From: Desulfobacula sp.
Lineage (GTDB): Bacteria; Desulfobacterota; Desulfobacteria; Desulfobacterales; Desulfobacteraceae
DNA: 64,000 bases
Assembly: GCF_030145145.1 (NCBI RefSeq)
Contig: NZ_JAQYWD010000003.1
Span: forward strand, 1-64,000
Reading direction: 5' to 3'
Positions within the stretch are counted from its first letter, which is position 1. Every line of letters starts with the position of its first letter. Below are positions 43,904 to 64,000 of the stretch, one piece after another. The translations under genes and the position numbers were made by a program. Below the pieces are notes generated by a model, which searched no databases, was not told where the DNA came from, and saw nothing but the letters and a program-made list of their open reading frames with translations.

Positions 43904-44179
43904 TCACTCGGTGAAAGCTGATCTCTTTTCCCGGTCAACAGGTGTCACCCCCGGCAATGGATCTCGAATGCCGGATTGAACTTGAACACGGGCAATATCC
44001 GGCTTGCTCACTTTCCCTGCATCATTGATGACACGCAATTGAAATTGATAGACACCTGCTTTTAATCCATCGATCCGGAGAGTTGACGTCCTTGTTTCAA
44101 AGGGTTTGTTATACTCAAGTATCAACGGGTTACTCCAACAGGGTCCATTCATATTTGACGACACGGCCGGGTGCGACAT
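43904..44179 (-). pseudogene. Frameshifted second half of a PKD-like protein
   Basis: This frame encodes the C-terminal beta-strands of a PKD/fibronectin-like domain (LKAGVYQFQLRVINDAGKVS...). Their counterpart (LSPGRHSFQLVVEDDSGNVS) lies in the first half of the gene at 44130-44438. That gene stops right after the conserved KYEWTLLE. Continuing in the +1 frame from that stop gives NPLILEYNKPFE and then this segment, so the two frames join into one protein if one base is removed near 44130. The ATG at 44179 is inside the upstream gene and has no convincing binding site. A real frameshift, a read error or programmed shifting are all possible. Confidence 0.55.
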
Positions 44180-44438
44180 CGCTGGAGCGTTTGCCGTTCA
44201 GAAAAAAACTCTGGCCGGGTTGGACTGTCTTGGGAGCATCCATTACAGCAGTGGGCAATATGGTATCCCTTACAATGACTTCAACCACATCAGGTAAACT
44301 GACATTCCCTGAATCATCTTCCACGACCAATTGAAATGAATGTCGCCCGGGTGACAACGTTGGTTTCTCCGGGTTTTGGGTAACCTCAATGGTTGCGACT
44401 TCTGTTGTTATTATTTCTCCAGGTTTAAAATCTGCCAT
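44130..44438 (-). CDS. PKD-like domain protein (first half)
   Basis: A 102-aa protein at the end of the contractile-tail operon, with its own binding site (GGGAGA) before the ATG at 44438. It holds the C-terminal half of one PKD-like domain (about 28-58, SPGRHSFQLVVEDDSGN) followed by the N-terminal half of the next (VQPGQSFFLNGKRSS then VVKYEWTLLE), where it ends. The family resembles short beta-rich proteins seen with phage-tail-like loci, perhaps decorating the fibre or baseplate. Its natural C-terminus seems to be lost to a frameshift (see the neighbouring frame). Confidence 0.65.
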   Translation of the reverse strand: MADFKPGEIITTEVATIEVTQNPEKPTLSPGRHSFQLVVEDDSGNVSLPDVVEVIVRDTILPTAVMDAPKTVQPGQSFFLNGKRSSDVAPGRVVKYEWTLLE

Positions 44439-44452
44439 GTTTATGTCTCCCG

Positions 44453-45400
44453 TTAATCAAATAAAGACCACCGATACCGCACGACACTCCGTCCTTGGAA
44501 CGCCATGGAATCTGATCCATCCAGGTTAAAACTTTTACCATATTCTGTGTTTATATCCATACCGGCATCCGCCACCGGGGCCAATATCGGATTTGTCTGG
44601 GCGTCCAACCGCCAGAGTTTTGCACCAATTGTCAAGGGGTTATCCATAGTATTAAACAATCGGATGATGCTTTTGTCATGTAATTCATAGTAAAAATCAA
44701 TGCCGTTTCCTTTGTTGGAAATCATGCCGCCGGGCAATCTGTTTTGCAGCTGCACCAACAAAGCATCTGAACCCAGGCCGTGGGGAATATTGACGTCACT
44801 GGCTGCTTCCAGCGATAGCCAGCCGGAATCAAAATCAGGGGTAATTGCCGAAACAACAGGATCGCCATCGTAACGCCATCGGCCCTCAATATCTTCAAAG
44901 AACCGACCACTGTGGGCCGCATGAATTGGCGGTATATACCATTCTCCTTTTTGAATAATATCATAACCGCCTTCTCTTGGTCGGATTTGGGCCACGGCAA
45001 TTTCATGGGGTATTTCTGTCTCGGTGTCATCATACAAAACAAATTGATACCCATTTTCAATCCTCATGGGTTGTCCGTTATTTTCTTGTGTAACGGTTGG
45101 GACATATTTAACGGAAAGAAACAACGCATCATCTGCCAATGAGATGGGTATGGTTGTGGCCGCTGGATGAATGACAGGCCTTGAAAATTGATCAAACGCC
45201 AACCCTTTTCCAACCCGGATGGTTTTATGGTCACCGGCACTGACACGAAACCCCCAACTCACGCCAGTTTTACCTAAAACAGTGCGCAAATAGTGTTGGT
45301 TTTGCAATAGATTTTCCTGCAAAAATTCCAGGTCTTCTTGCCGTACTCGCTGGCCATCATAAAAAAGTAGTTTTGCCTGTTCGTTCATTGTGTTATCCAT
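44453..45400 (-). CDS. Baseplate/fibre-associated protein with C-terminal PKD-like half domain
   Basis: A 315-aa protein. The N-terminus (LFYDGQRVRQEDLEFLQENLL, then GVSWGFRV and GKGLAFDQFSRPV) follows the pattern of conserved proteins near fibres in contractile-injection and phage-tail loci (FYDGQxLxxxDL...GWGxxxGLxV...GxAxDxxGRxI). The middle is beta-rich. The C-terminal 40 residues (GKSFNLDGSDS then VVRYRWSLFD) look like the first half of a PKD domain that stops abruptly after the conserved Trp. The next gene begins 14 bp later with a complementary half. It probably sits at the distal end of the particle. The exact role is inferred. Confidence 0.65.
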   Translation of the reverse strand: MDNTMNEQAKLLFYDGQRVRQEDLEFLQENLLQNQHYLRTVLGKTGVSWGFRVSAGDHKTIRVGKGLAFDQFSRPVIHPAATTIPISLADDALFLSVKYVPTVTQENNGQPMRIENGYQFVLYDDTETEIPHEIAVAQIRPREGGYDIIQKGEWYIPPIHAAHSGRFFEDIEGRWRYDGDPVVSAITPDFDSGWLSLEAASDVNIPHGLGSDALLVQLQNRLPGGMISNKGNGIDFYYELHDKSIIRLFNTMDNPLTIGAKLWRLDAQTNPILAPVADAGMDINTEYGKSFNLDGSDSMAFQGRSVVRYRWSLFD

Positions 45401-45403
45401 TGT

Positions 45404-47125
45404 TCAGTAAGCCATTTCCTGCTGGTAACGGGCGATAACATTTTGAAATGTGATGCTGCCCGACGCGTGGGCGGTAATTTGTAAGTCCAGTCCGACACTA
45501 TTGTTTTCCGGTGCGACAACAGGTCCCTTACTCACACCGGTTTCAGCATCAAGATAGGAAAATGTGAGTGTATTCATCTCTTCCGGGAGATCAGCGTCCA
45601 CTGTTGTTCCCGCGATGGTTAAAGAGACCACCCGGGCATTTTCTCCTACTGCGGGTTTCCTGTATTGCCGGAATGAAATTGCCAGATTACCGCTGTTGTA
45701 AGGAAATTTCTTATACCCGGCACTATTTCGATTAAACAAAACCGCTTTTTCCGTTGAATCGCTATCAAGAACCACGGATAGTCGGCCCTTTTTTGATTTG
45801 ATCACAAACCAGAGATTTTTACCTGCCACAACCGACAGGGGTTTTGAAAACATCACATCCACCCAGCCGGCGTCATCATTGGCAGCAAAGGTGACACTTT
45901 CTTCAACAATCGGTATATTATCCGGTTGTCCTTGTTTGTCGGTTTGTATCTCAATTAGGATGGCACTTTTTTCCTTATTGGCTGAAACAAATAATCCAAG
46001 CCCGTACAGCTCCGTTGTTTCGGTTATGGAAAGACATTGTGCGATATTTAGATCTGAACACACACTGGCGGATATCTTATCCGGCACATCCAGGGTGTTT
46101 CTTGGAAATGACCGCCAGTCAGGAAATTCAGGGATCACATCAAGACTGATACGGTGTATTTGCCAGCTATTTGGAGTGCTAGCCGGAAATTTGAGGGGTA
46201 GATGTTGTACCCCCTGCCGATCAAAGCTGATGGATTGGCGATGGGAATCCCCCCATTTCGCTTTTCCTTCCCGGTCGTAAACAAGCTGAAAATCACCCAG
46301 CGCAATTTTCCCGGGGGCATCCATTGTTATCATTAACGGGAAGTTTTCAACATCTTCTGCCCCTGCTGCCCTGATCTCGTCAAGATACGCATTGAGTTCG
46401 TCGGAAAATTCCGGAAGGGGTGTCTCTTCCTTTAATTCACCGGCATAGGTATGGAAAGGGGGCCTGTTACCAACGGCTACGCGCGTATTTAACGGCAGTG
46501 TACTGCTGATAATAAACAGTTTGTCCAGCACCTCATCGGTTCTATCCATTTCTTCGCCGGGTGGATTTATTACCGGGTTTTCAAACTGTATAAACAATTT
46601 AGCGGTTTCTACCGCTGTAAAACTGACGTTATCGACACCCGGGTCGGCTAAGGTTAGTTTTTCGTTATAAGGGAAAAGGGGCTTGCTCCCAAATTCAATG
46701 CCCATCCAGGGCAGCACCATGACAATGGGTGGCAGTTTTCCGTCTACCTCTGCCACCGCAAGAGCTTTAACCTTTCGGATGCCGCCAAAATCCAGTATAA
46801 ACGCTTTTGATGATTCGCCTGCTGACGTAACAACGGCCTCACCTCCGGCAGCCGGGGTTTCATATTCTATGGCACTTGCAGAGACTGATGTACCTGAAAA
46901 ATGTCTCAAATTACCGTCGTGGGCAGAGCCGATCAAAGAACCGTTAACAATACGAACCCTTGCATTTCTGGGGATGTGGTGTTCAATTAACTGGGTGGTA
47001 TTCCCTGACTGAGCATCCAAATTATAATTAATATAATTTTCCCACCCCCAATGTGTCTGCCAGCTTACGGCGCTGTATTCGGTCGCTGTAACGGAGATGT
47101 CTAAATCGTGACGGGTATCTACCAC
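45404..47125 (-). CDS. Surface/fibre-type protein with jelly-roll module
   Basis: A 573-aa beta-rich protein. In the C-terminal half, a segment of about 110 residues (around 385-490) has the wording of the 'choice-of-anchor'/glycan-binding beta-sandwich seen in phage fibres (LFVSANKEKSAILIEIQTD..., GWVDVMFSKPLSVVAGKNLWFVIKS). The rest has no clear domain. Its place after baseplate genes, where receptor-binding proteins usually lie, suggests host or surface recognition. No chaperone, collagen-like repeat or trimerisation domain is visible. It is separated by 3 bp from the next gene and 14 bp from the previous one. Confidence 0.6.
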   Translation of the reverse strand: MVDTRHDLDISVTATEYSAVSWQTHWGWENYINYNLDAQSGNTTQLIEHHIPRNARVRIVNGSLIGSAHDGNLRHFSGTSVSASAIEYETPAAGGEAVVTSAGESSKAFILDFGGIRKVKALAVAEVDGKLPPIVMVLPWMGIEFGSKPLFPYNEKLTLADPGVDNVSFTAVETAKLFIQFENPVINPPGEEMDRTDEVLDKLFIISSTLPLNTRVAVGNRPPFHTYAGELKEETPLPEFSDELNAYLDEIRAAGAEDVENFPLMITMDAPGKIALGDFQLVYDREGKAKWGDSHRQSISFDRQGVQHLPLKFPASTPNSWQIHRISLDVIPEFPDWRSFPRNTLDVPDKISASVCSDLNIAQCLSITETTELYGLGLFVSANKEKSAILIEIQTDKQGQPDNIPIVEESVTFAANDDAGWVDVMFSKPLSVVAGKNLWFVIKSKKGRLSVVLDSDSTEKAVLFNRNSAGYKKFPYNSGNLAISFRQYRKPAVGENARVVSLTIAGTTVDADLPEEMNTLTFSYLDAETGVSKGPVVAPENNSVGLDLQITAHASGSITFQNVIARYQQEMAY

Positions 47126-47139: not shown

Positions 47140-47652
47140 TTAAATGTTATAGATAAATGTCAAATCTTTATGGACGGCTGCCAGTGTTTCATCCGTGGCA
47201 TTTGATGCAACGATTTCTTTTTCCACTGCATATTTTTTTACGGTATCTTTTTGTGTTGCACTCATGTCCGTATACGCTTTGTTTTCTGCTAACACCTTTT
47301 TCATCTCCACGTCTGACTGAATATCATCCGTGATCACTTTTACATCAGCGGTTTTATATTTTCCTTTTATGGCATCACTCAACGCTGCTATATCTCCCAC
47401 AGGAATTGAATCTTTTGACATAAACGTAAGAATAACAGGTGTCCCCAAAGGAACTTGTTCGCCAGCCCTGGGAAATTGATCCACAACAACCAAACGGGTT
47501 GGATTGATTTTTTCCGCGTCAACATACTTGGATAGATCGATTTTTTTCTGCAGCTCAGATGTATCCCGCAGGGCCATTTTCAATGTTCTGGAATCAACAT
47601 TTGTCGCCAGCAATGATTGACGGGACAAATTATTATTTGTTGTCAGTGCCAT
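47140..47652 (-). CDS. PASTA-like small tail-operon protein
   Basis: A 170-aa protein. Residues about 50-83 (VVVDQFPRAGEQVPLGTPVILTF) read as the second half of a PASTA domain, which in kinases and penicillin-binding proteins binds peptidoglycan; PASTA domains normally show V.dQ.P.aG..v..Gt.V.l. The remainder is helical and lysine-rich. It has its own ribosome binding site (GAGG). The gene directly upstream ends with the first half of a PASTA domain, so the domain appears split across the two genes. A cell-wall-binding tail part is an inference. Confidence 0.55.
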   Translation of the reverse strand: MALTTNNNLSRQSLLATNVDSRTLKMALRDTSELQKKIDLSKYVDAEKINPTRLVVVDQFPRAGEQVPLGTPVILTFMSKDSIPVGDIAALSDAIKGKYKTADVKVITDDIQSDVEMKKVLAENKAYTDMSATQKDTVKKYAVEKEIVASNATDETLAAVHKDLTFIYNI

Positions 47653-47668: not shown

Positions 47669-48403
47669 TTATTTTGATGAAATTGTCTTTGTTTCACCCA
47701 ACACCAAACCCAAATTTTCCAGGGCAACCCTGGCCTCATTGAGACTCAGACCCTTAAGGTCCGGCACTTTTTCCCGCTGTTCCACGGCTGCTTTAGCTGA
47801 CACCAGAAGTGCGACAGGTCCACCGACGGTATGGTTAAGACCTGCTTCAGGAACCTGATTTAAAACTTTGACGTCAGCGCCTGATTCTTTTATATCTGCT
47901 TGAGTCAATTCTTTGCCGTGACTATCGATAATTCTATTCAACAAAAATCCCGCCTCTTTTATTGCACTATTGGCAGCAACCAGGCTAAGCCCAAAATAAT
48001 TGGCAACTGACTTTTGCTGTAGGGTTTTCGTCATTTCAATCTTGGTAACGACGGGTGCGTTACCTTCCGGCACAACTAGTTCTCTTGTTTCACCGGCATA
48101 GCCGTCAGCTTCAACAAACAATTTATAGTTGCCGTGGGAGATATCCCTAACAATGTATTTTTTAATATCAGCTCCGGCATAGGTCGCGATAACAGGGGGG
48201 TTTTTTTCTGATGTGAGGGTTATCTGTGCATTCTTTATGACATGATTATCCCCATCATCTATCACCGCAATGGTCAATTGACTCGCGGATTGATTGTATG
48301 CCTCATATAATTTTTTAATTGAAACAATGACATTATTCCATGCTTCAGAAGTGATCGGATCACCGGGTGTTGCAGTGATTAGTGGCGGATGTGTGATTGC
48401 CAT
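47669..48403 (-). CDS. PASTA-domain protein of the tail-like operon
   Basis: A 244-aa protein. The N-terminal part (about 40-130) has the look of a carboxypeptidase-regulatory/Ig-like beta domain (DISHGNYKLFVEADGYAGETR). One PASTA-like unit follows (about 130-205: ANYFGLSLVAANSAIKEAGF ... VLNQVPEAGLNHTVGGPVALLVS). At the C-terminus a second unit starts (KVPDLKGLSLNEARVALENLGLVLGETK) but the gene ends there, before the second half. PASTA in a contractile-tail cluster is unusual and points to binding of peptidoglycan or its fragments. The identification is by pattern. Confidence 0.6.
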   Translation of the reverse strand: MAITHPPLITATPGDPITSEAWNNVIVSIKKLYEAYNQSASQLTIAVIDDGDNHVIKNAQITLTSEKNPPVIATYAGADIKKYIVRDISHGNYKLFVEADGYAGETRELVVPEGNAPVVTKIEMTKTLQQKSVANYFGLSLVAANSAIKEAGFLLNRIIDSHGKELTQADIKESGADVKVLNQVPEAGLNHTVGGPVALLVSAKAAVEQREKVPDLKGLSLNEARVALENLGLVLGETKTISSK

Positions 48404-48457: not shown

Positions 48458-49819
48458 TCACAAAACCGTGCCATCAAAAAATATTCCTTTTCCTGTCAGC
48501 GCAGTGGTTTCTCGTAAAACACTATGGTTGATGATCCAGTCATCGGAATAATAGGCCACATTTACTCGAATCCCTGCCCCTCTAAAGCGCTCCAGACCCG
48601 CACGGATCCAGGCGGTTAAATCAACAGACTCCAGATATTCATCCAATGCCGTCAAATCATCCGGTATTAAAATGGTTACAGCATATAATTCGTGCTCCTC
48701 CCATAAGAGTTCTACCTTGCCGGAAGCAGGCAACGCATTCAGTTCAACCACATCTGTGGGAAGGGAAAAAACACATCGGTTAAATGCATCCCCATCAAAT
48801 ACGCCCTCTTTCACTGAAAATTGCCAGGTACTATCACCCAATGGTATCCGGGGCATTTTAAGTTCAATTAACGGCAGGATGACCGGTCTGGGAAATTTAC
48901 GGTGCAGTGCCCCTTCCGGCGCCACAACCACAAACAGATCATCCGGTGTGACCACCACTTTTTCTTCATCAAATAAGGCGCCTTCAAACGTGTAACACCG
49001 GTCCGTAACATCTAATCCGTTTAAGTATGCCTTTCCCTCCCGGGTAAACAATAAGGTTTGGCCTTCCATTATTGTTCCGTTAAAGCCGATTCCCTGGTGG
49101 GTGGTGAGGTTAATGATTTGAGGAAAAACGGTTCGGTTTTGTATACCAACAATTTTGATGGCGATCCGGGTATCAAAAAATCCGTTTTTCGTGATGGGAA
49201 ACCGTTCCCTCTGGCGCCGGTCTTTGATCGCACTGGATTTTTCCATAACCGGATTTTCCACCAGATAAAGATACCCTGATCGATCAACCAGGGTTTCATC
49301 TGCCATGGTTTTATACTTTACAGCCAGGCGGTGTATAAATCCGCCCCGATAGGTGTCATCTATCCAGATATCATCATCAGGATGTTCTAATGCAGGCGTA
49401 TTCTCTTCGGTAAAAAGTGTTTCTGCGGCAAGCAAAATACATGTCCCTTCCAATAAAGACCAAATGGTACCGCACCCGTCGGCAAACACCTTGACGGTTC
49501 GCTGAACTAAGGTCCGGAGAACAGATAGATACGCTTTGTAACCGGTGTGATCCCGGGGACCAAACACGTGTGATAGATAAAAATTCTGTACGATTGCAAA
49601 ATCAGCGGACGTCAATCCCAACAGAGCCGACAGACGGTGCAAATCCGCCGCGTGTCGTGCCAGGAACAACCGATGGGACCGTAAAATATCCGCCATCCTG
49701 CGCTCACATTCATCCAGATTCCCTCCGAGAACAGCACTGATCTCGCCCATTACCTTTCCGGTATGGTCCGTCCGCATAAACGCGGGGAAATGCTTGAGAA
49801 TACTTACGTCTCTGCCCAT
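48458..49819 (-). CDS. Tail protein I-like baseplate component
   Basis: A 453-aa protein. The N-terminal third (LKHFPAFMRTDHTGKVMGEI..., LHRLSALLGLT...) matches the gpI/P2-like tail protein, which together with gpJ closes the baseplate in contractile tails. It follows baseplate J by 2 bp. The later two thirds are beta-rich and longer than in P2, where gpI is about 200 aa. Comparable large versions occur in extracellular contractile injection systems. The start has an overlapping frame with the previous stop region and looks correct. Confidence 0.65.
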   Translation of the reverse strand: MGRDVSILKHFPAFMRTDHTGKVMGEISAVLGGNLDECERRMADILRSHRLFLARHAADLHRLSALLGLTSADFAIVQNFYLSHVFGPRDHTGYKAYLSVLRTLVQRTVKVFADGCGTIWSLLEGTCILLAAETLFTEENTPALEHPDDDIWIDDTYRGGFIHRLAVKYKTMADETLVDRSGYLYLVENPVMEKSSAIKDRRQRERFPITKNGFFDTRIAIKIVGIQNRTVFPQIINLTTHQGIGFNGTIMEGQTLLFTREGKAYLNGLDVTDRCYTFEGALFDEEKVVVTPDDLFVVVAPEGALHRKFPRPVILPLIELKMPRIPLGDSTWQFSVKEGVFDGDAFNRCVFSLPTDVVELNALPASGKVELLWEEHELYAVTILIPDDLTALDEYLESVDLTAWIRAGLERFRGAGIRVNVAYYSDDWIINHSVLRETTALTGKGIFFDGTVL

Positions 49820-49821
49820 AA

Positions 49822-51633
49822 TCAGGTTTTCTTTTCTTCTGTTGTTATTTTTCTCAACACAGCCTGTTCTTCCGGAGATAACATCATGGTTTCATCCAAT
49901 TCTTTGATCATCAGGCCGGCCTGCTCATATTCCACGGTCCAGTGCTGATCCGCTTCGGTCAGAGTAAACACGTCGCTGGGCTGCAATTGTGCCTGTATAC
50001 CGGATGAATCAATGGTGGCGGGAGCGGTTGAAAAATAGCTTACCAGTTTTTGTTTTATCTCCAGTTCCGCTGCAGCCAGTGTGTTTGCCACTTTTAAGCC
50101 CAGGGAAAATCGAAAATCAAAATACACTGGCGCACCAACAAACAGCACTTGAATATCCGTTTGCTTGTCCAGAAATACTGCCCGTTGTCCATCCGGAACG
50201 ATCAGGTTTCTTCTACCCTTCTGGGTGACATCCTCTGATGGATAAAGGTCCAGCACAATATCCCGTATGCCGCCCTGGGCCATAATAGTGACAATTAATT
50301 GATTGAAAATAATGGCACCCCCAATCGGTGTGCTATCTACATGGTCAAAGACTGCAGTAACAATTGAATTTTTTAAACGGGTCTTTTCATCCGCGGTTAA
50401 ACGGGTGTTTTCCGGATAAATCAGGATATTACAGTTGATCGGCAGCCTGAAATCATCACCGGCCATGGAAGAACTCATGCTAACCTCAAACGCGCTTTCT
50501 TCTCTTAAGTCTTCATCAGACACGGCCACACGGTTATCAATTGAAATCGTATTTTGCAGATTATGCTCAAAGCGAACCCCTGCGGGGCGGCTTGCCAGCA
50601 ATGCGTTATCAACATTAGCAGCTAACGCTGCGTCGGGCTCTCGAGCAATAAAGAGTTTCACTAACCCTGGATGACCCTGAAAGTCTTCAACCAGCTTTAT
50701 GTCATTCTCTTTTAACCCGGCCCCGGAAGTGATGGCATTAACAATAGCGCCTTTGGTTGCCCGGCCGGCTCGTTCCATCACACTTTTTGCCCGCAACCGT
50801 AATTCTTGATCTGATTCTTTTTCACCACTGAATAAAGTGGGCGCATCATTCGTTACAGCGGTGATGCCATGAATGGCTTTATTGATGATATTAATGGCGC
50901 TGGCTGCCACAACACCCGTGGCACCTGCAACCTCTGATCTTACCGTGGCTTCCACCGAGAGCTGTCCTTTCCGCAAGGTACGGTCACTGGTTGTAACAAA
51001 ACTGACCGGAGGATTCAGGTTTGTTGATAATTTTGTATCCGCCGGAATATAAATATCTCCCGGGGCGGCTGATTCACGGTATAATCTGACTGTGCCGCCG
51101 GCATAATCGCCGCCTTTGCGCGTTAACCCCAGCAGGGCGACAACCTGATCCAGGGCAGTGCCGTTTGCGGTATCGATAAATCCGGATTGATATACCATTT
51201 CCAATTGTTTTTCAAGAACCGCTAATTCCCGGCTGAAGGCTTCGGCAAGGGTGCGCGTCAGGCTGCCAACATTTCTATCTGTGAGTAAGGCGTTGTCGCT
51301 CTCATGATGATAATAACTGACAAAAAATTCCGACCCTTCGTCCGGCCAGATAGCGTTTGCCCCAGGCAATAATGCATCTTCCGTATCCGTGAGAAATTTT
51401 ATCTTGCCTTTTGTTGTAAACTGCCAGTCTCGCCCCGGTATAAAAACGAGAAAAGCTTCAGACGATTGTCCCAAAACTTTAATGGTGTTGACCTTTACCT
51501 CACTAAACGACCGGGACAGACTGTAACCGGGTGTTTTGGGAAAAAATTGATGCACCTCCCGGGTTTCTCCACCGGTCAAGCCGGTGAGAAGCTGATCAAC
51601 CAGTGCAACATACGGCTCTGCAATATAATTCAT
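49822..51633 (-). CDS. Baseplate J-like protein
   Basis: A 603-aa protein of the gpJ/gp6 baseplate wedge family. Typical segments are LTRTLAEAFSRELAVLEKQLEMVYQSGFIDTANGTALDQVVALLG (about 110-155), APGDIYIPADTKLSTN, and NAPTLFSGEKESDQELRLRAK near residue 270, where gpJ proteins show the conserved DPESDEELRxR. It forms the ring around the spike with gp25. It overlaps the gp25 gene by 4 nt, the order found in contractile tails. Confidence 0.85.
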   Translation of the reverse strand: MNYIAEPYVALVDQLLTGLTGGETREVHQFFPKTPGYSLSRSFSEVKVNTIKVLGQSSEAFLVFIPGRDWQFTTKGKIKFLTDTEDALLPGANAIWPDEGSEFFVSYYHHESDNALLTDRNVGSLTRTLAEAFSRELAVLEKQLEMVYQSGFIDTANGTALDQVVALLGLTRKGGDYAGGTVRLYRESAAPGDIYIPADTKLSTNLNPPVSFVTTSDRTLRKGQLSVEATVRSEVAGATGVVAASAINIINKAIHGITAVTNDAPTLFSGEKESDQELRLRAKSVMERAGRATKGAIVNAITSGAGLKENDIKLVEDFQGHPGLVKLFIAREPDAALAANVDNALLASRPAGVRFEHNLQNTISIDNRVAVSDEDLREESAFEVSMSSSMAGDDFRLPINCNILIYPENTRLTADEKTRLKNSIVTAVFDHVDSTPIGGAIIFNQLIVTIMAQGGIRDIVLDLYPSEDVTQKGRRNLIVPDGQRAVFLDKQTDIQVLFVGAPVYFDFRFSLGLKVANTLAAAELEIKQKLVSYFSTAPATIDSSGIQAQLQPSDVFTLTEADQHWTVEYEQAGLMIKELDETMMLSPEEQAVLRKITTEEKKT

Positions 51634-52183: not shown

Positions 52184-52513
52184 TCAACCGGACATGTCAT
52201 TCAAATAGGGTGCTGCCGGCGGCCCTATCACCTGCACAATCCCTGGCCCGGTGGGACAAAAATCTCCCATTCTGATCACCGGTAAATTATCAATTGTTAT
52301 TCCCTTTGCCAAGGGGGCACCAATCGGTAAAACATAGGGCACGCCCGTTACCGAGTGTATAAATTGGCAGCTGGACCCTTGCACCGCCAAGGGCATTCCC
52401 CCGGCAGTTGCAGTGACCTGGGTAACGGCGATGATTACACCCATGTCCGGTGCGCCGGCCATTCCCGGGGATAGCAGGAGTGCACAACCAATTGTAACCG
52501 GCATTCCAGGCAT
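52184..52513 (-). CDS. PAAR-like spike tip protein
   Basis: A 109-aa glycine/proline-rich protein, with repeated small units such as GMPVTIGCALL, GGMPLAVQGSSCQF, GAPLAKGITIDNLP and DNLPVIRMGDFCP. These are in keeping with PAAR-type or related spike-tip proteins, which cap the beta-helix spike. The two cysteines and one histidine (SCQFIH, DFCP) could supply a metal site. It lies directly downstream of the spike gene. The family call is by pattern and position. Confidence 0.6.
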   Translation of the reverse strand: MPGMPVTIGCALLLSPGMAGAPDMGVIIAVTQVTATAGGMPLAVQGSSCQFIHSVTGVPYVLPIGAPLAKGITIDNLPVIRMGDFCPTGPGIVQVIGPPAAPYLNDMSG

Positions 52514-57162: not shown

Positions 57163-60100
57163 ATCGGCACCGCCTGCATCATGCCTTGATAAGCGGTATC
57201 GACTTTATTCAGCTCAATATCCAACTCTTCGGCCAGACCATCCATTCTTTCCAACAATACCGCGATGGGATCGGTTAAATCGAAAAGCGTTAATATGGGT
57301 TCGATTTTCTCATCAAACGCGGGCTGAACAACTTCAGAAATGAGCGTGTCCGGATTTAACGCCCCAAGTTTTAATAGTGTCTCAGCATAGGTATGATCAA
57401 TTGCTTGTACTTCAGCGTGTGGCAATACTTGCTCGACATCAATTAACGCCAGGGTATTGTCCAGTAACGTCTGCAAGGATTCCCGCAAGGGTTTGGGATT
57501 GATATCATTAAATTTTTGTTTGACAGCAGTAAAAACATCCTTGAGTTCCTGCTCAAGAAAATCCAGGTTTAAATTCCTGATACGGTCTACCATGCCCGCC
57601 AGTATGGTCTGAATCTCTCCCAATGATCCCGGCCCTTCCACGATATCTGAAAACAGATCGTCCATGGCATCAACAAACCCCTGTAATCGATTAACCGGAC
57701 CGTCAAATGCGCTGAACGCGGTTGTGATGCTGGAAAATAAGTTGCTTATCGGTTTAATGGTATGGTCCTGGATGCTTTGCTTCATCATATCTTTAACCGT
57801 TTGTGACGTTGGATTATCCAATTGCAGGGCCCTAAAGGAGGAGTCGGTCCCAAAAAAACGATCCTCCCAATCGGCCAGCAGATTCTCTGTGTTGCTGAGT
57901 GTGGTCTGTAAACCGGTTTGGGTTTCCCGAAGCTTGCCAAATACCAGATTCACGGGTGGAGAAACCGGATTAAACCGACCCCGTATGGATAACAAGGCCG
58001 TCTTTTGCGGGCCTGGGGGCAAGACGTCAATTGCAGATGGATTCAACCGCCCATAAGCGGCTAACAAACGAGGGTGTATGGTTTGTGGGTCCAGCGTATC
58101 CAGAGCCGTTTGCAACGGTGTGACGGCTTGACTGATTTGAGACATAATCCCCGTTTTTTTTAGGGTGTCGACATTTTGTGACATCTGATTCAGTGTGATG
58201 TCAATGCCGGGTATTTCCGGCAGGTTGTCAACCTGGTCCAGCACCGGTTGTAACCATTGGGTTAACTGGGCTTCCGGATTTGCCAATTCAGTTACCATGC
58301 CTGTCAATGTGTCCACCAGACTTTTTATTTCAGTCACAATCGCCCGGGCGCTTTCCAGACCTGAAACGATTTTTTCCAATATTTCAAACACTGATTCTTC
58401 GGGTAATATGTCAAGAAAACTGGTGGTCATTTCATTTATCTTGTTGTTTATCGGCTCAACAATGGCGCTGGGATCCAATTGGGTTAATTGCTGCGCCATG
58501 CCATCGTACAAATCTTCCACTGGTTTTAGCAAAGTAACAAGATCAATTTGCCTGGAAATTTCTTCTTTTAAATGGGTGAGGGCAGTCTGGATGGGGGTTA
58601 GCACCGTGCTGGGTGTAAAGTCTGCCAGATCTTTGAGTAGATTGTCGTATTCCTTGAACAAATCATTCCCGATGAGTTTATCCGGAGAAATTTCGTTAAG
58701 CTGCGCAGCTAATGATTTTACGGGTTCCTGAAGTTGTAAGAGGAGCGCTTTGGGACCCTCTTCTATGAGGTTGTCCAACTCTGATGTCAGCGTATGGATC
58801 GGTTGTTCAAGGTCCTGTGGCAACGCGTTAATGGCCGTCTGGATCTGCTGTTTTAAATCATCGCTCAACAACGATGATGGAACCAGTTGGAAGACGTCTT
58901 TGACACCATCAATACCCGTCACAACACCATCCACAACAGGGGTAAATGATGCGGCCTGTAGTTGCTCAGTTATTGTCTCAATAGTGGATTTAATCAGATG
59001 AATCGCATCCATTACTTCCTGGGATGAAAATATAGCGGTCATCTGATCAATCATATCCTGTATCGTTGCTTTTATTTGTTCAGGATGAAAGCTGTCAACG
59101 GCGGATTCTATCAAATCAACAGCAGAGGTTACGGCAGTTCGTATGGGGGTAAACAATTGATCGATAACGGACTTGATCGTGTCGTGTATTTCCTGCAGCG
59201 CGTTCTCTACACTCTCTTGAAAAGTAACCGTGTCAATGAGGTCCAGCGCATTTTGGACGTCATCGAAAACTGCCGACACAGTGCTGGTGACTTGCAACAT
59301 GGCGCTGTCAAAGGTATCCAGCGCATCACCCAGGCTATTTGTCACAGCGCTTAACGCATCCTTCACCACCGAAGTGTTCAGCAATGCAAGCATATCGGTC
59401 ATCTGTTTAAACAGGTTCTCTGCCGCTTTGGTTAACTCTTGAATACCGGATTGATGGATTCCCTGTTGAATGAGATCATCAATGATGACGAAAAAATCAG
59501 CTGTAGCAGGTGGTTTCAATAATCTTTGCAATTGCAGCATGGACTGATTCAACCCGCTGCTTAATTTTGACAGGGACTGATTCAACTGGACCAGTTCATT
59601 TTCTAGTACCGTGTCACGGAGACTATCCAACAGCGGTAATAATATATCCAGAGACGTATCAACAACACGTAATTGGTCATCCATGCCCGTGATATCATTT
59701 GCTTCCAGCCCAGTGGCAATCTCTTCCATTGCACTGGCCACTTGTATGCTTTGAGTCCCTAATTCATTAAAGTCTATTTTTACCAGGATATCATTGACCT
59801 GTTTTGATAGGTCATGCACGGGTTTTAATCCGTCCCGATCCAGGGCAGTTGTCAATGAGGTGAGTGTGTTCTGAATATGGGTCTGTATTCCGGACGAATC
59901 CATTTCAGAAAATCCAACGCCTGTATTTAATAATAGAAATACGTCGTCATAAACCGGGACGTGGGACATGTTGACATTATCACGGGGTATCCCTTTTAAA
60001 ACGTCTCGGAAAAACCCAACCGCATTTTCAGCATTAAAAGGCGTTGGAAAAGCACCCACTAACGCTGAAATATTTTTTGTTGCGACAACAGCGCCACTCG

Positions 60101-60689
60101 CTGAAGCATCCACTGATGCGCCGGCATTTGCCTCAGCAGTGCCGGACCCCTGGCTGCCCGAGTCTTCGGCCCCACCTTCTGACCCGCCATTTCCTGTTGC
60201 CAGGGGTTCACTTGCCGCAGGCCCACCTGCAGCGCTTGAACTTGTTGGGCTTTCACTGGCTTCTGCCAAGCTTGCCGGGGGGCTGCCGCTGGCAGTAAAC
60301 TGAAAACGACTAAAATCCATTTCGATCAATACTGACAACGTCTCAAGACACTGGATAAACGCCTGGATGGAAGTTAAAACATTGACATCCAGTACGTTAT
60401 TTATCCCGGACAACACGCTGTCCAGGCCACCGGTGATGCTATTGAAGTCTGTGGGGATGACATCGGATATACCGGAAAATCCGCTGATAAAATTATCCGG
60501 CAAACGGATATTTGTCAGAGAAATATTCGACAACCCTTTGATAAGGTCATCAATCTCTTCGGGGGGACTGTTGATCAGATTGCTCAACGTGGATGCAGCA
60601 CTGGTTATCGACCCTATTTGGCCATCGAGATCTGCTAAGATGCCGCTGGAAGAAATCAGGCTTTGCAATTGCTCGGGTAAACTTGCCAT
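57159..60689 (-). CDS. Giant helical protein, probable tape measure
   Basis: A 1176-aa protein built of amphipathic helices with leucines in repeated heptads from about 230 to 1170, and a Ser/Ala/Gly-rich, low-complexity linker at about 133-203. Only one cysteine is seen (near 115). Size, helix content and position between tube/chaperone genes and hub genes fit a tape measure, which sets tail length. If so, a tail of more than 150 nm would be expected from length alone, using roughly 1.5 A per residue (inference). It overlaps the following gene by 4 nt and the previous one by 1 nt (TAATG). Confidence 0.6.
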   Translation of the reverse strand: MASLPEQLQSLISSSGILADLDGQIGSITSAASTLSNLINSPPEEIDDLIKGLSNISLTNIRLPDNFISGFSGISDVIPTDFNSITGGLDSVLSGINNVLDVNVLTSIQAFIQCLETLSVLIEMDFSRFQFTASGSPPASLAEASESPTSSSAAGGPAASEPLATGNGGSEGGAEDSGSQGSGTAEANAGASVDASASGAVVATKNISALVGAFPTPFNAENAVGFFRDVLKGIPRDNVNMSHVPVYDDVFLLLNTGVGFSEMDSSGIQTHIQNTLTSLTTALDRDGLKPVHDLSKQVNDILVKIDFNELGTQSIQVASAMEEIATGLEANDITGMDDQLRVVDTSLDILLPLLDSLRDTVLENELVQLNQSLSKLSSGLNQSMLQLQRLLKPPATADFFVIIDDLIQQGIHQSGIQELTKAAENLFKQMTDMLALLNTSVVKDALSAVTNSLGDALDTFDSAMLQVTSTVSAVFDDVQNALDLIDTVTFQESVENALQEIHDTIKSVIDQLFTPIRTAVTSAVDLIESAVDSFHPEQIKATIQDMIDQMTAIFSSQEVMDAIHLIKSTIETITEQLQAASFTPVVDGVVTGIDGVKDVFQLVPSSLLSDDLKQQIQTAINALPQDLEQPIHTLTSELDNLIEEGPKALLLQLQEPVKSLAAQLNEISPDKLIGNDLFKEYDNLLKDLADFTPSTVLTPIQTALTHLKEEISRQIDLVTLLKPVEDLYDGMAQQLTQLDPSAIVEPINNKINEMTTSFLDILPEESVFEILEKIVSGLESARAIVTEIKSLVDTLTGMVTELANPEAQLTQWLQPVLDQVDNLPEIPGIDITLNQMSQNVDTLKKTGIMSQISQAVTPLQTALDTLDPQTIHPRLLAAYGRLNPSAIDVLPPGPQKTALLSIRGRFNPVSPPVNLVFGKLRETQTGLQTTLSNTENLLADWEDRFFGTDSSFRALQLDNPTSQTVKDMMKQSIQDHTIKPISNLFSSITTAFSAFDGPVNRLQGFVDAMDDLFSDIVEGPGSLGEIQTILAGMVDRIRNLNLDFLEQELKDVFTAVKQKFNDINPKPLRESLQTLLDNTLALIDVEQVLPHAEVQAIDHTYAETLLKLGALNPDTLISEVVQPAFDEKIEPILTLFDLTDPIAVLLERMDGLAEELDIELNKVDTAYQGMMQAVPI

Positions 60690-61312
60690 TAGCTGCCACT
60701 CCCAAAAAGCGACTCCAGGGCGCTGGAAGCCGCATCCAAGGCACCCATGCTTTTTTTAACACCATCCAGAGCGGTCGCCAGGGGCGGTGAGGGATCACCA
60801 AAATCAGGGATAGACAGCAAATCGGGTATTTCCATCATATCAAACAAATTTCCTGCATCTATATCAAGTCCCAAATCCAGATCCGGCCCCAAATCGTCTA
60901 AGCCGGGGAATCCTTCGCCAAAACCGTTGTCGGTTGTTGGCTCAGGTGGGGGAACATATTGCCTGAGTTTTAATTGGTATAGAAATGGACTGTCAGTGCC
61001 GGCGACTTCCTGAACACGAATGCTTTCGATCAGGATCTCAAACACTTCTGTAGCCGTGACGATATCGGCAACAAAGTCCACTGGTTCAGCAGCATCGTAC
61101 ATCTCTCTGACGGATTCGAGAAATCCATCTCTTGCCTCATCTTTGGCCAATGATCCCTCTATAACAATGATGACCGACTCAGCCCCAAGGTCCTGACTTA
61201 AACCGCCTTCCAGTCCTGGAACCGGAATATCCACAATGCGTCGGTTTTGATCAGCACCAATACGCTGTAATCCAGGCACTTCCAAGTCACCTATCATGGG
61301 GTGAATATTCAT
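60689..61312 (-). CDS. XkdP/DNA-circulation-like tail protein
   Basis: A 207-aa protein. The N-terminal 120 residues (RIVDIPVPGLEGGLSQDLG ... VIIVIEGSLAKDE ... EPVDFVADIVTATEVFEILIESIRVQEVAG) have the wording of the N-terminal domain shared by phage tail proteins of the XkdP/gp53/DNA-circulation group, which connects hub and tape measure. The C-terminal part is Asp/Gly/Leu-rich and has no LysM domain. Start and stop overlap the neighbouring genes by 4 and 1 nt. The family assignment is by memory of the pattern. Confidence 0.55.
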   Translation of the reverse strand: MNIHPMIGDLEVPGLQRIGADQNRRIVDIPVPGLEGGLSQDLGAESVIIVIEGSLAKDEARDGFLESVREMYDAAEPVDFVADIVTATEVFEILIESIRVQEVAGTDSPFLYQLKLRQYVPPPEPTTDNGFGEGFPGLDDLGPDLDLGLDIDAGNLFDMMEIPDLLSIPDFGDPSPPLATALDGVKKSMGALDAASSALESLFGSGS

Positions 61313-62715
61313 GAGAGATCAACGCCTCGCAGCCTGGCTTGTCGGGTTAATACTTCCACCAGTTTATTTTCCACCTCTTCCTGTGCCATCCACTGCACGG
61401 CAGTCTGTAATTCTTCCGGAATCGTATTGGGACTGCTCTTTTGTGTCGTCACGGGTGTTTGATCTTGTTGGTCCTGAATTTGATCCGTCTGATTTTGTAT
61501 GGTTTGGCCTCGTTCAATAACAGGCGGATTATTCTGCTTCGGTGTTATTCCCTTATCAGATCTGTTGAATGTTTCATCAAGTTTTTGATGAAATTTTGCC
61601 GTTGCCCTGGCTGGCGCCGTCAGTTTTTTTGTTTCTACTGGATTGTTTTCAATACCCTTACGATCAATACCTGTTTTTTTATTTCGTACCTGGTGAATGG
61701 ATTCTTTTTCGCGTATAAAGTGTTTTATCTGCTCTGATACGATATCGCCGAATCGAATCGTGTCATTCTTTGCCGGCTTTTCTCTCCCTGCTATCTTAGT
61801 ATTGGCCTGGGAGATGAGGGTTCCGATATTCGCCGGTTGTTTTTTTGTTAGGGTACCCTTTTTTTTATTTGACAATTGTTTTTCAAACACAAGTCTAACT
61901 TTGTCGTCTGCTATTTTTTTGGTGTCTATATTTTCTTGAGTGGTCGTCCTATCCCCAGATGCAACATTTTTGTGTTCCCTAATTGATCTTGACGCTATTT
62001 CATCCGTGTCTTTGGGCGTATGGATATCGTTCTGATGGTGTTTGATATAATTTGAATCAGCAATTAATTTGCTTTTTCCCTTTAATACATTCCCGTATAC
62101 AGGATTCATATTCGTTGCCGGCCTTTTTTTCTCTACTATTTCTGCAGTGGTTTGGGCGATGTGTTTTTCGACCGTTGTCGGTTGCTTGTTTGTTGTGCTA
62201 ACCGCTTTTTTGTTTGACAGTCCTTTTTTAAACAGGGTTCTAATTTTAGTGGCTGCTTTTTTTTTGGCATCTATGTTTTCTTGAGTCGCCGTCATAACTG
62301 CATCATTTTTCAGTTCAGTGATTGATCTTGACGCAATTTCATCGGTGTCTTTGGTCTTATGAATATTATTCTGAGGTTGTTTTATATGTTTTGAATCAGC
62401 AGTTAAGTCACCTTTTATTCGTTCAACTATGGATGGAAGGTCTTTATGAATTTCGTTTTTGATCACGTTCAATAAAAATAGTTGGGTCTCTTCATCCCCT
62501 TTGGAGGCAATTTTTTGCCCATTTTTATCGAGAACCGTATGTTTAAGACCATGGGCAAGCTTTTTAACTTCATCTAACAACGATTGCTGTCTTTTATCAA
62601 TGGGGTTTTGTCCTAAAAGGGAAAAAATATCTTTAAAAAGCATTGATACATCCGCATCAAGGGCATTTTTCAGGTCACTTGGTCTGGCATTAAAGTTATG
62701 GAGGGTATGTATCAT
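61309..62715 (-). CDS. Lysine-rich protein with a duplicated ~98-residue unit
   Basis: A 468-aa protein with no recognised domain. Residues about 106-202 and about 219-317 are two copies of one unit: DTDEIASRSI, TQENIDxKK, LSNKK and KPAxN recur in the same order at the same distance. The protein is rich in Lys, Gln, Asn and Thr, probably disordered or coiled, with a conserved-looking C-terminus (PEELQTAVQWMAQEEVENKLVEVLTRQARLRGVDL). It lies between chaperone-like and XkdP-like genes, overlapping both by 4 nt. The tail C-terminus could dock to another tail part. The function is unknown. Confidence 0.65.
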   Translation of the reverse strand: MIHTLHNFNARPSDLKNALDADVSMLFKDIFSLLGQNPIDKRQQSLLDEVKKLAHGLKHTVLDKNGQKIASKGDEETQLFLLNVIKNEIHKDLPSIVERIKGDLTADSKHIKQPQNNIHKTKDTDEIASRSITELKNDAVMTATQENIDAKKKAATKIRTLFKKGLSNKKAVSTTNKQPTTVEKHIAQTTAEIVEKKRPATNMNPVYGNVLKGKSKLIADSNYIKHHQNDIHTPKDTDEIASRSIREHKNVASGDRTTTQENIDTKKIADDKVRLVFEKQLSNKKKGTLTKKQPANIGTLISQANTKIAGREKPAKNDTIRFGDIVSEQIKHFIREKESIHQVRNKKTGIDRKGIENNPVETKKLTAPARATAKFHQKLDETFNRSDKGITPKQNNPPVIERGQTIQNQTDQIQDQQDQTPVTTQKSSPNTIPEELQTAVQWMAQEEVENKLVEVLTRQARLRGVDLS

Positions 62716-63203
62716 GGGTCCTGACTTTCAGATTGATTTTGACGGATCATTTCAATATACATCAACACCTGCCCCAGGGTGAGATCAGAAATTTGCTGGG
62801 GCGACCAGCCAAATTCTCTGGCCAGAATAAAACAGGCTTTTGCCATGGGTTCCTGAACTGCCTGGGTTAATTCATCTTCACTGGCCTTTAATCCACTGAT
62901 TCGTTGAACTTCACCCAGGATGTAACGAATCAGTCCGCTGTTTAATTTCATCACCTCTTCATAACTCAACACCGGCTCTATCACTGACTCTTTCACCATA
63001 AGGGCTGACATCAATCCGTCGTTGTCCCGGGATGCTTTTAGAATACGCTGCACGGCATTCATGGACAAGGGTGTTAGCTTTATTTTTAATCCCGGGCCAT
63101 TGCCAGGTTTCAATTGCCCGGGGTTAATTATCTCATCCGGTACTTCCATGTCATAACTGAGTGTACTGCCGGCCAGTAATTCTTCAGCACTTAAATAAGC
63201 CAT
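62712..63203 (-). CDS. Tail assembly chaperone-like protein
   Basis: A 163-aa protein. The N-terminal half has a strand-rich segment (LKIKLTPLSMNAVQRILKASRD), the C-terminal half ends in AREFGWSPQQISDLTLGQVLMYIEMIRQ. Proteins of this length and ending, between tube and tape-measure genes, are typically tail assembly chaperones of contractile tails. It starts 3 bp after the tube gene and overlaps the next gene by 4 nt. No slippery frameshift site was checked in detail. The call rests on position and the C-terminal pattern. Confidence 0.5.
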   Translation of the reverse strand: MAYLSAEELLAGSTLSYDMEVPDEIINPGQLKPGNGPGLKIKLTPLSMNAVQRILKASRDNDGLMSALMVKESVIEPVLSYEEVMKLNSGLIRYILGEVQRISGLKASEDELTQAVQEPMAKACFILAREFGWSPQQISDLTLGQVLMYIEMIRQNQSESQDP

Positions 63204-63206
63204 TGC

Positions 63207-63704
63207 TTAAGCCTCTGCGTCTTCTATACCAACCCACAGTGCCTGAAAGCCGACCTTTTCCATGACAAAATCATCTTCCGGAATATCAAATGACCAGTTT
63301 TCCAGTTTTACACCGTATAGGGTAACGGCAGATGATGTCCCCTCCTTGGCCGGGTTTTCCAGCCGCAGATTCAAATTAAATGTCGGGCTGATAAAGGTGC
63401 CGGCCGGGCGACTTGATGCCGCGTCTCCAAGAAACATTTTCAGCAGGGCGCCGTTGATGAACGCTCGATCGATACTTCCATGAACATTGACATTCCCTGG
63501 TCGCAACTCGGTTGCATACCGCTGTCCCAACTCATGAAACGGTTTTAAATCAGATTCCACTGTCACCTGCACACCCGTCACCCGTCCCACCGGTGTTAAT
63601 GCGTATGCATCAATTACAGACTGTGCACTGTCTCCTTCTGCGCCACTATCAACAGAAACGGATATGGAACCATCTGAACCTCTAAAAACATTAGTATTGG
63701 CCAT
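63207..63704 (-). CDS. Tail tube protein
   Basis: A 165-aa protein of beta-rich character. It has the usual size for a contractile tail tube and directly follows the sheath gene. Segments such as GRVTGVQVTVESDLKPFHELGQRYATELRPGNVNVHGSIDRAFINGALLKMFLG fit tube proteins of the gp19/XkdM type, which stack into the hollow rod inside the sheath. A very strong ribosome binding site (AAGGAGAGG) suits a protein needed in many copies. 48 bp separate it from the sheath gene's stop. Confidence 0.7.
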   Translation of the reverse strand: MANTNVFRGSDGSISVSVDSGAEGDSAQSVIDAYALTPVGRVTGVQVTVESDLKPFHELGQRYATELRPGNVNVHGSIDRAFINGALLKMFLGDAASSRPAGTFISPTFNLNLRLENPAKEGTSSAVTLYGVKLENWSFDIPEDDFVMEKVGFQALWVGIEDAEA

Positions 63705-63752
63705 TTAAACCTCTCCTTGTTATTTAAACCTCATATCAAAAGCGTGAAAAAA

Positions 63753-64000
63753 TTATGACAAATTCATAATCACTTTGACATAATCGATACTGAATGTGGG
63801 TTTCAAGTAGAGTGTTACCAATGCAACTCCCGCAATTTCCTGTTCCCGGGTAGCCGTGACTTCCAATTGAAAATCTGTGAGCTGCTCATCGAGTACCATT
63901 TGCGACAAGAAACCATTCAGTGTGCCATACATGGCACCACGAACGCGAGCATTATTCAGTTTGCCGATATACGGCAGTGTGGCGCGACGCACCCCTTCCT
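63753..64000 (-). CDS. Tail sheath protein, C-terminal fragment (cut by window edge)
   Basis: The last 82 residues of a contractile tail sheath. The frame stays open to the right edge and contains GVRRATLPYIGKLNN, then a LNGFLSQMVLDEQLTDFQLEVTATREQE segment and a C-terminal VTLYLKPTFSIDYVKVIMNLS, which is the conserved end of gp18-like sheaths where strands link neighbouring subunits. The body of the gene and any upstream genes are outside the window. Confidence 0.75.
   Translation of the reverse strand, partial: EGVRRATLPYIGKLNNARVRGAMYGTLNGFLSQMVLDEQLTDFQLEVTATREQEIAGVALVTLYLKPTFSIDYVKVIMNLS

What the first reader, a model, noticed from the sequence alone, without database searches (positions are those of the whole stretch)
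43904..64000. A contractile-tail-like operon with no head genes, in an anaerobic sulfate reducer
About 20 kb on one strand, with gene gaps of a few bases or overlaps, encodes sheath, tube, chaperone-like protein, tape-measure-like protein, hub, spike, PAAR-like tip, gp25, gpJ, gpI and surface proteins. Capsid, portal, terminase, integrase and lysis genes are not in the window. The order resembles extracellular contractile injection systems and tailocins. Seen: gene order and families. Inference: an exported injection machine rather than a prophage.
Basis: partly seen in the sequence, partly recalled or inferred. Interest (0 to 1): 0.8.

Follow-up and report, generated by a model that had tools for sequence, protein, structure and literature searches.

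The report
Headless contractile tail with payload slot
A bacterium related to sulfate reducers carries a complete spring-loaded phage-tail machine with no virus head and a gene slot that relatives fill with different large enzymes, so it looks like an uncatalogued kind of protein-injecting or killing device.

Summary
A one-strand operon of 20 genes encodes a complete contractile tail. It runs from window 43904 to 1,973 bases past the window end, where a tail-terminator-like gene lies upstream of the sheath. Ordinary bacterial genes flank it, and no capsid, portal, terminase, integrase or lysis gene was recognised. The eCIS reading fails three membership tests: the tube is not of the gp19 family, and no DUF4255 cap or AAA+ ATPase was found. 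The gene order is that of a Mu-type phage tail. Syntenic clusters occur in eight other genomes (Desulfobacteraceae, Myxococcota, unnamed kin) and four IMG/VR contigs. In 10 of 13 loci the slot before the hub holds one or more large variable genes: subtilase, propeller-metallopeptidase, Rhs, deiminase, or the window's 969-residue protein with a sub-threshold M23-like end. Two loci fuse such domains to the baseplate-like protein p207. Fibre genes split PASTA and PKD domains across gene boundaries. Best reading: a headless injection tail whose payload is assembled in at the tip without an ATPase loader. Headlessness is well supported. Payload delivery is inferred. A cargo-free tailocin remains possible.

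The parts
63753..64000 (-). tail sheath gene, C-terminal 81 residues in the window (whole gene to contig position 65420, 555 aa)
   Evidence: PF17482 2.2e-6; full gene PF04984 5.9e-12, PF17482 2.3e-10. Upstream, outside the window at contig 65458-65973, lies a 171-aa tail-terminator-like gene
63207..63704 (-). tail tube, 165 aa
   Evidence: PF18906 Phage_tube_2 6.1e-6 just below cut-off; PHROG tail 3.9e-7; 7-sequence alignment with 76% mean column identity
62712..63203 (-). p163, in the place of a tail assembly chaperone
   Evidence: no Pfam/PHROG match; aligned in 7 loci, 39-91% identity to the window copy; position as Mu gp41
61309..62715 (-). p468, low-complexity protein with conserved C-terminus
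   Evidence: against G481 only the C-terminal 53 residues match (56.6%); the first 49 match G480, whose contig ends there
60689..61312 (-). p207, baseplate-hub-like protein
   Evidence: weak PF19512 DUF6046 0.028 and PHROG hub 0.014; family profile; fused to OmpA and peptidoglycan-binding (in G428 also PAD) domains in G410 and G428
57159..60689 (-). tape measure, 1176 aa
   Evidence: PHROG tape measure 1.5e-18; recognised relatives 1125-1206 aa
54253..57162 (-). p969, large protein in the variable slot before the hub; candidate payload or tip enzyme
   Evidence: C-terminal M23-like segment only sub-threshold (E 0.008-0.057 in 3 of 3 relatives); no hydrophobic 19-residue stretch over 1.6; structure model failed, pLDDT 28.7
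53272..54249 (-). baseplate hub (gpD-like)
   Evidence: PHROG hub 1.0e-8; NCBIfam VgrG-related 8e-16, under its cut-off
52526..53287 (-). spike (gpV-like)
   Evidence: PF04717 1.8e-7; VgrG models 1.2e-13, under cut-off
52184..52513 (-). PAAR-like tip
   Evidence: PF05488 0.0072, below cut-off
51630..52112 (-). gp25 sheath initiator
   Evidence: PF04965 8.3e-6, just under cut-off; PHROG baseplate 1.6e-17
49822..51633 (-). gpJ baseplate wedge
   Evidence: PF04865 1.1e-16; PHROG 1.4e-37
48458..49819 (-). p453, in the gpI position
   Evidence: no family match; syntenic relatives
47669..48403 (-). p244, fibre-like protein with N-terminal GD..I....WN motif, ending in the first half of a PASTA domain
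   Evidence: PASTA profile 2-30 of 64; motif in 9 of 9 loci that reach this gene (pattern chosen after seeing the sequences)
47140..47652 (-). p170, holds the second half of the PASTA domain
   Evidence: PASTA profile 40-62 of 64, E 0.026; G481 relative 41-62, E 0.0067
45404..47125 (-). p573, likely fibre or receptor-binding protein
   Evidence: relative in 7 of 7 other genomes whose cluster reaches this position
44453..45400 (-). p315, baseplate/fibre-like protein ending in the first half of a PKD domain
   Evidence: PKD_4 profile 3-41 of 85, weak, 0.093
44130..44438 (-). p102, C-terminal first half of a PKD domain
   Evidence: PKD_4 profile 4-40 of 85; the G481 relative also holds a second half at its N-terminus
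43904..44125 (-). p91, second half of a PKD domain; start re-placed to TTG 44125 (the ORF list's first ATG is at 44179)
   Evidence: PKD profile 47-77 of 84; G481 relative is 61 aa

Best explanation
The operon makes a stand-alone contractile tail without a head. Shown by sequence: it starts with a tail-terminator-like gene, then sheath, tube, assembly factors, tape measure, a large variable gene, hub, spike, tip, gp25, gpJ, gpI-like and fibre genes, in the order of a Mu-type phage tail, between ordinary bacterial genes; the same headless arrangement is conserved in other genomes; the slot before the hub holds very different large proteins in different genomes, some with recognised enzyme domains; two loci fuse such domains to the baseplate-like protein p207. 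Inferred: the slot protein is built into the tip (near p207, tape measure and hub) during assembly, which would do without the AAA+ loader that PVC needs; sheath contraction drives tip and payload into a target cell; in the window the payload is p969, whose M23-like end suggests, weakly, an effect on a bacterial cell wall; fibres join through half-domains shared between neighbouring proteins. The target, the mode of release and the particle itself are not shown.
For: Complete tail module with terminator-like gene. Mu order. Syntenic clusters in 8 other genomes and 4 IMG/VR contigs; flanks scanned in three loci are bacterial genes. Slot content: a large extra gene in 10 of 13 loci: subtilase 1.5e-31, NHL-propeller proteins with HExxH, PAD 1.2e-94, Rhs (PDB Rhs 2.7e-22 and 7e-31), p969 type in three. 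Fusion of p207 to OmpA/peptidoglycan-binding domains in G410 and G428, found by a profile built without them (1.2e-31, 6.9e-31). No AAA match among the window operon's genes in Pfam and no glycine-rich Walker-A motif in the called operon ORFs of the carriers. PVC needs Pvc15 for payload (PMC11495950 passages).
Against: No particle, delivery or toxicity is shown. p969 matches no family above threshold and its fold failed. Three of 13 loci (L053, L091, G482) have no slot gene, so it is not essential to the tail; G482 also lacks a recognised tape measure and p207 there. Slot proteins share no recognised common tag. In G410 and G428 the tape measure is short or unrecognised. The Walker-A control is weak: of four eCIS stretches fetched, only one (G355:C18) showed the motif. 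The sheath tree does not cleanly separate the family from Mu (support 73/88, long branches).
Confidence: 0.55

Rival explanations
1. It is a tailocin-like bactericidal tail without payload. p969 is a structural tip protein or muralytic helper, and killing comes from envelope puncture alone, as with R-type pyocins.
For: Phage-tail gene order and terminator-like gene; pyocin R2 collar and monocin cap among the fold matches; M23-like end of p969; 3 of 13 loci have no slot gene.
Against: The slot holds unrelated large enzymes in relatives, which a structural role does not explain. [quoted passage not shown] No holin or endolysin gene was recognised by Pfam in the operon.
Confidence: 0.25
2. It is a cell-bound or cytoplasmic contractile system, acting by contact or on the producer itself, as haloarchaeal T6SS-like or Streptomyces CIS do.
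For: No lysis gene recognised; membrane proteins (u396, CHAT-CHASE2) lie upstream on the same strand; caspase-type peptidase genes adjoin the operon in G285 and G481.
Against: The membrane and CHAT genes matched nothing in the other regions compared. No anchor gene was found conserved. Fibre-like genes with a shared N-terminal motif point to a free particle.
Confidence: 0.1
3. It is a canonical eCIS (Afp/PVC type) with diverged parts.
For: Headless contractile tail with enzyme-like genes; the third-best PDB match of the sheath is the S. coelicolor CIS sheath 8bky (0.0064; organism), after two other sheaths (9ezm 2.3e-6, 5li2 4.5e-4).
Against: PF06841 tube and PF14065 cap absent from this genome and from 7 of 9 carriers; present only on other contigs in the remaining 2. 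No AAA+ ATPase found in the operon. Phage-type tube family and gene order.
Confidence: 0.04
4. It is the tail part of a decayed or split prophage.
For: Relatives of the sheath (L095, L097) and of p207 (L095) occur in IMG/VR contigs that carry head or packaging genes (L095 major head protein 6.2e-23; L097 terminase 4.3e-37), so the tail is of phage origin.
Against: Intact ORFs and same synteny across phyla, conserved over deep divergence (39-93% identity to the window copies); bacterial genes at the flanks; no sheath, tube or hub match in 50,697 phage records.
Confidence: 0.05

Closest known systems
Contractile tail module of Mu-type myophages
   Same: sheath, tube, chaperone position, tape measure, [gene], hub, V, gp25-like, J, I, fibre in the same order; the Mu gene gp37 before the sheath is annotated 'portal protein' in that record, I recall it as the tail terminator
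   Different: no head, packaging or lysis genes; a PAAR-like gene is inserted; the Mu gene-N place holds a variable large protein; no sequence match of sheath, tube or hub in 50,697 phage records
R-type tailocins (pyocin R2, monocin)
   Same: headless phage-derived contractile tail with a tail terminator; R2 collar and monocin cap among the terminator fold matches
   Different: slot with large enzyme-like genes; no lysis gene recognised; [quoted passage not shown]
eCIS (Afp, PVC, MAC and relatives)
   Same: headless contractile machine with enzyme-like accessory genes
   Different: no gp19-type tube, DUF4255 cap or AAA+ ATPase found; phage tail order. Core list from PMC8213781 (passages)
Haloarchaeal CIS / archaeal T6SS (PMC11566945, abstract and passages)
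   Same: toxin genes sit in the middle of the structural cluster
   Different: there the cluster has homologues of all but cis6, cis14 and cis19, an ATPase among the annotated groups, and is membrane-bound

Membership tests
eCIS | tube of Phage_T4_gp19 (PF06841) | tested here: not met
   locus tube matches PF18906; PF06841 found nowhere in this genome and in 2 of 9 carriers, on other contigs
eCIS | cap/terminator of DUF4255 (PF14065) | tested here: not met
   none in this genome; 2 of 9 carriers, on other contigs. The locus has a phage-terminator-like protein instead (TM-scores mostly 0.3-0.5)
eCIS | AAA+ ATPase (Afp15/Pvc15/Cis15) | tested here: not met
   no AAA match among the window operon's 20 genes; no glycine-rich P-loop in called operon ORFs of the carriers. 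Control: 1 of 4 eCIS stretches showed the motif (G355:C18), the others being short or cut, so the motif scan alone is weak
eCIS | sheath, gp25, gpJ, spike/PAAR | tested here: met
   shared with phages, so not specific. PAAR and gp25 below cut-off
R-type tailocin | contractile phage tail with terminator, no head genes | tested here: met
R-type tailocin | own lysis genes and regulators in the cluster | tested here: not met
   none recognised among the 20 genes by Pfam. One PHROG endolysin match (3.7e-5) lies in the coiled tape measure among many tape-measure matches and is not taken as a lysin; divergent genes could be missed
R-type tailocin | kills bacteria by puncture without cargo | not testable with these tools
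   needs particles
Prophage | capsid, portal, terminase, integrase | tested here: not met
   not recognised in operon or scanned flanks; no tRNA in the window
T6SS (types i-iii) | membrane complex and ClpV | tested here: inconclusive
   no such gene recognised in the locus; whole genome not searched for them

The most novel reading that the evidence does not exclude
A separate lineage of headless injection machines, built on a Mu-ordered phage tail, that carries exchangeable payload enzymes assembled into the tip through p207 and the tape-measure/hub slot, so needing no AAA+ loader, with fibres joined by half-domains complementing between neighbouring proteins. Published screens that demand an ATPase or eCIS-specific genes would discard it as phage or tailocin.
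Probability: 0.4. Interest if true: 0.8.

Novelty: new variant of a known kind. Interest (0 to 1): 0.62.

Why it matters
It points to a blind spot. [quoted passage not shown] By that logic clusters of this kind would probably be dropped; I did not run those screens. If the slot proteins are payload, this bridges tailocins (not known to carry harmful cargo) and eCIS (ATPase-loaded), and makes the question of how a tail acquires and loads cargo testable with a small set of genes.

Tried and rejected
eCIS membership: rejected on tube, cap and ATPase. Prophage: rejected for the close family. Structure of p969 was useless (pLDDT 28.7) and was not searched. A PDB profile search of its C-terminus found nothing. 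My early note that p969 has a hydrophobic middle is withdrawn: no 19-residue window passes 1.6. M23 assignment of p969 stays sub-threshold, and its first zinc-ligand motif looks degenerate (my reading). PGB579 gave no PDB match. The idea that the upstream genes (CHAT-CHASE2, FecR-PASTA, PG-binding, M6, EEP, MBL) belong to the machine is not supported: none matched the other regions, and PGB579 occurs in 1 of 86 family genomes. Promoter and terminator scans gave about as many sites as shuffles. Sheath tree: the three eCIS sheaths fall apart from the family, but Mu, P2 and HRTV8 are long branches and the deep split is weak. Three further weak gpJ matches in the phylum (G015, G109, G245) were not followed up. 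Chen et al. 2019 (PMC6899500) was not held, so its six eCIS clades were not checked. Literature searches whose listings showed no description of this arrangement: (open-licence PMC only; not all hits were listed: 20 of 26, 10 of 1,975 and 13 of 14).

Rows left out of the 13-locus slot count: L094 (several small genes before the sheath, origin unclear), L095 and L097 (head or packaging genes), L096 (partial), L098 and L099 (not annotated), L054-L056 (short p163 matches only). G380 and G480 are taken as one genome, since their 7,170-base contigs are identical, and count once; L090 is L053. In the motif scan one further hit, in the G482 sheath, is taken as chance.
Full report
WHAT IS THERE. The window is positions 1-64000 of a 189,115-base contig. 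On the minus strand, 20 genes run from 65973 to 43904 with gaps of -50 to 71 bases; a 490-base gap precedes the first gene, and a convergent gene ends 47 bases beyond the last. The window edge cuts the sheath gene, and a 171-residue gene precedes it. That first protein was modelled from an 8-sequence alignment (mean pLDDT 74.8). Its 50 listed PDB matches are mostly phage neck and tail-terminator proteins (best E 4.9e-5, TM-scores mostly 0.3-0.5); among them are the monocin cap, the R2 pyocin collar, and, further down, PVC and Anabaena CIS caps. The sequence families of the other genes are in the parts list.

NO HEAD. Among the operon genes and the flanking genes scanned with Pfam, none matched head, packaging, integrase or lysis families. 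One flank of the window locus is dihydroorotate dehydrogenase, its partner subunit, a phosphoribosyltransferase and a CheB/CheR protein, beyond a ferredoxin-type gene; the other side carries a CHAT-CHASE2 protein, a FecR-PASTA protein and a thiamine-diphosphate enzyme. No tRNA lies in the window. tblastn of sheath, tube and hub against 50,697 phage records found nothing; gpJ found 63 distant matches, led by haloarchaeal tailed viruses, none covering 80%.

A FAMILY. Syntenic clusters were read in 8 other genomes: a Desulfobacteraceae MAG (G480, its contig identical to that of G380), a second Desulfobacteraceae MAG (G481), a Myxococcota MAG (G482), G355 and G318 (same family), and G285, G410 (single-contig chromosome) and G428 (same phylum). 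It is rare: close sheath relatives in 4 of 86 genomes of the family (10 of 86 counting weaker matches), the tube profile in 4 of 395 of the phylum, and 1 of 282 of the set around the Myxococcota genome, that genome itself. None of the 25 other genomes of its genus has a sheath match at 1e-5, though several are incomplete. Scans of IMG/VR found no tube relative, 4 p163 matches of which 3 are short, and 10 sheath relatives. Of the IMG/VR contigs, L053, L091, L092 and L093 hold the same cluster with no head gene recognised in the stretches read, though these were checked almost only against the family profiles and a Walker-A motif, and only L053 was read whole. L095 and L097 are phages with head or packaging genes and more distant sheaths (30% and 25% identity), which shows the phage origin.

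NOT AN eCIS BY MEMBERSHIP. Geller et al. (PMC8213781, passages) list gp19 tube, DUF4255 terminator and AAA among the core. PF14065 and PF06841 are each absent from 7 of 9 carrier genomes, this one included; the two with matches, G355 and G482, have them on other contigs. For the ATPase, Pfam found no AAA match among the window operon's genes, and a Walker-A motif scan over all carriers gave only weak patterns inside operons (G000 p468, G355 slot protein, a G428 fibre gene), while glycine-rich P-loops occurred only in genes outside them. As control, the G355:C18 contig, which also has the gp19 tube and DUF4255 cap, carries a 738-residue ORF with a canonical P-loop; the other three eCIS stretches fetched, mostly short or cut contigs, did not show one, so the motif scan alone is a weak test. 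Draft assemblies could hide genes elsewhere. The order matches phage Mu: sheath, tube, chaperone, tape measure, N-like gene, hub, V, wedge, J-like, I-like, fibre (the gene before the sheath, gp37, is annotated as portal protein there, and I recall it as the terminator).

THE SLOT. In Mu the N-like gene lies between tape measure and hub. Here that place is variable. Three loci (G000, G480, G481) have the p969 type, 50-81% identical to the window's. G285 has a 1869-residue subtilase (1.5e-31); G355 has two NHL-propeller proteins (1409 and 1373 residues), the first with an HELSHW motif; G318 has a 1681-residue NHL protein with HEMAHW and a 1895-residue protein without a Pfam match. L092 and L093 have Rhs-type proteins (7e-31 and 2.7e-22 to a solved Rhs protein). 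G410 and G428 have giant proteins that begin with a p207 domain and continue with OmpA and peptidoglycan-binding domains, in G428 also a protein-arginine deiminase (1.2e-94); there the tape measure is short or not recognised. L053, L091 and G482 have nothing in the slot; in G482 neither tape measure nor p207 was recognised there. That is 10 of 13. G410 also has an 814-residue subtilase between spike and gpJ. These identities suggest exchangeable payload, and the p207 fusions suggest where it attaches. Both are inference.

p969. No 19-residue window passes the hydropathy threshold. Its last third resembles peptidase M23 around an HLHTH motif, below threshold in all three relatives (0.008-0.057). 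The structure prediction failed and the PDB profile search found nothing.

FIBRES. A GD..I....WN motif near the N-terminus marks one protein after gpI in 9 of 9 loci that reach this place (the pattern was drawn from these sequences). In the window that protein, p244, ends with PASTA positions 2-30 and the next, p170, holds 40-62. G481 shows a p170 relative with 41-62 and a p244 relative with two PASTA stretches. In G482 the alignment agrees, but Pfam does not detect the second half. PKD is likewise divided: p102 in G481 matches PKD 37-73 at its N-terminus and 3-40 at its C-terminus, and the next protein matches 52-80. The G481 p315 C-terminal fragment gave no match and the window p315 match is weak (0.093). 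Most of these half-matches are below cut-off; their order and conservation carry the argument. In G481 the first two frames are separated by a stop and restart in the same frame, in the window by a frame change, so a sequencing slip is unlikely.

SITE. Of 26 genus genomes, this one included, 18 have the flanking DHODH gene at 1e-60. Seven of the other 17 were fetched with flanks, some short. Homology to the contig ends at 42,787-42,806 in all seven; G343 also keeps the next gene (Fer4). In one of the seven (G344) the gene found at contig 88535 follows after 975 bases instead of 45.7 kb. The locus thus lies in a variable stretch that holds other genes as well.

HOW IT PROBABLY WORKS. Shown: genes, order, conservation, slot variation, fusions, no ATPase found. 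Inferred: particle, tip loading, contraction, delivery, target. PVC particles form without Pvc15 but lack payload (PMC11495950, passages), so a payload-bearing tail without an ATPase must load differently; incorporation of tip-borne proteins during assembly is the simplest way.

NOVELTY. Searches of open-licence papers, of which I saw the listings, showed no description of this arrangement. PMC10553843 (passages) reports eCIS in some sulfate-reducing partners of methanotrophic archaea, found with BLASTP and dbeCIS; its supplements were not open to me, so overlap with this family cannot be excluded.

Noticed in passing
window 47140-48403 and 43904-45400: PASTA and PKD domains are split across neighbouring genes at conserved points, in the window and G481 (PASTA also in G482 by alignment): possible half-domain complementation between fibre subunits.
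   Followed up: partly
L010:9765-10610 (G285) and L049:13664-14749 (G481): A caspase-family (Peptidase C14) gene follows the operon in two loci; those genomes hold only 2 and 3 C14 matches in all. In G481 an Amidase_3 and a metallophosphatase follow. Of the other 7 carriers 6 have no C14 and G482 has 15, none on its two tail contigs. Rough chance of adjacency 0.002 and 0.006, not corrected for the families looked at.
   Followed up: partly
L002:6464-16872 (contig 66464-76872): Same-strand genes upstream of the operon: MBL-like, M6-peptidase-like, endonuclease/phosphatase-like, peptidoglycan-binding, membrane protein, FecR-PASTA, CHAT-CHASE2. The peptidoglycan-binding gene is in 1 of 86 family genomes. 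Possibly extra payload, but not conserved with the tail.
   Followed up: partly
L024:19234-19998 continuing in L025, and L027:583-1680: In G355 and G318 (and G285) the tail-terminator-like protein carries an extra C-terminal domain that reads like a lectin-type fold (my reading; no Pfam match).
   Followed up: no
L092, L093: Contigs held as viral in IMG/VR carry this cluster with Rhs proteins; the genes before the L092 sheath read like bacterial metabolic genes and the gene before the L093 sheath like a transposase (my reading): probably bacterial loci misfiled as virus.
   Followed up: partly
G355:C16, C18; G482:C258, C389, C403, C502: Two carrier genomes also hold gp19-tube and/or DUF4255-cap genes of conventional eCIS type on other contigs.
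   Followed up: partly
window 61309-62715: p468 is low-complexity with a conserved C-terminal end; the G481 relative is 368 aa and matches only at that end.
   Followed up: no
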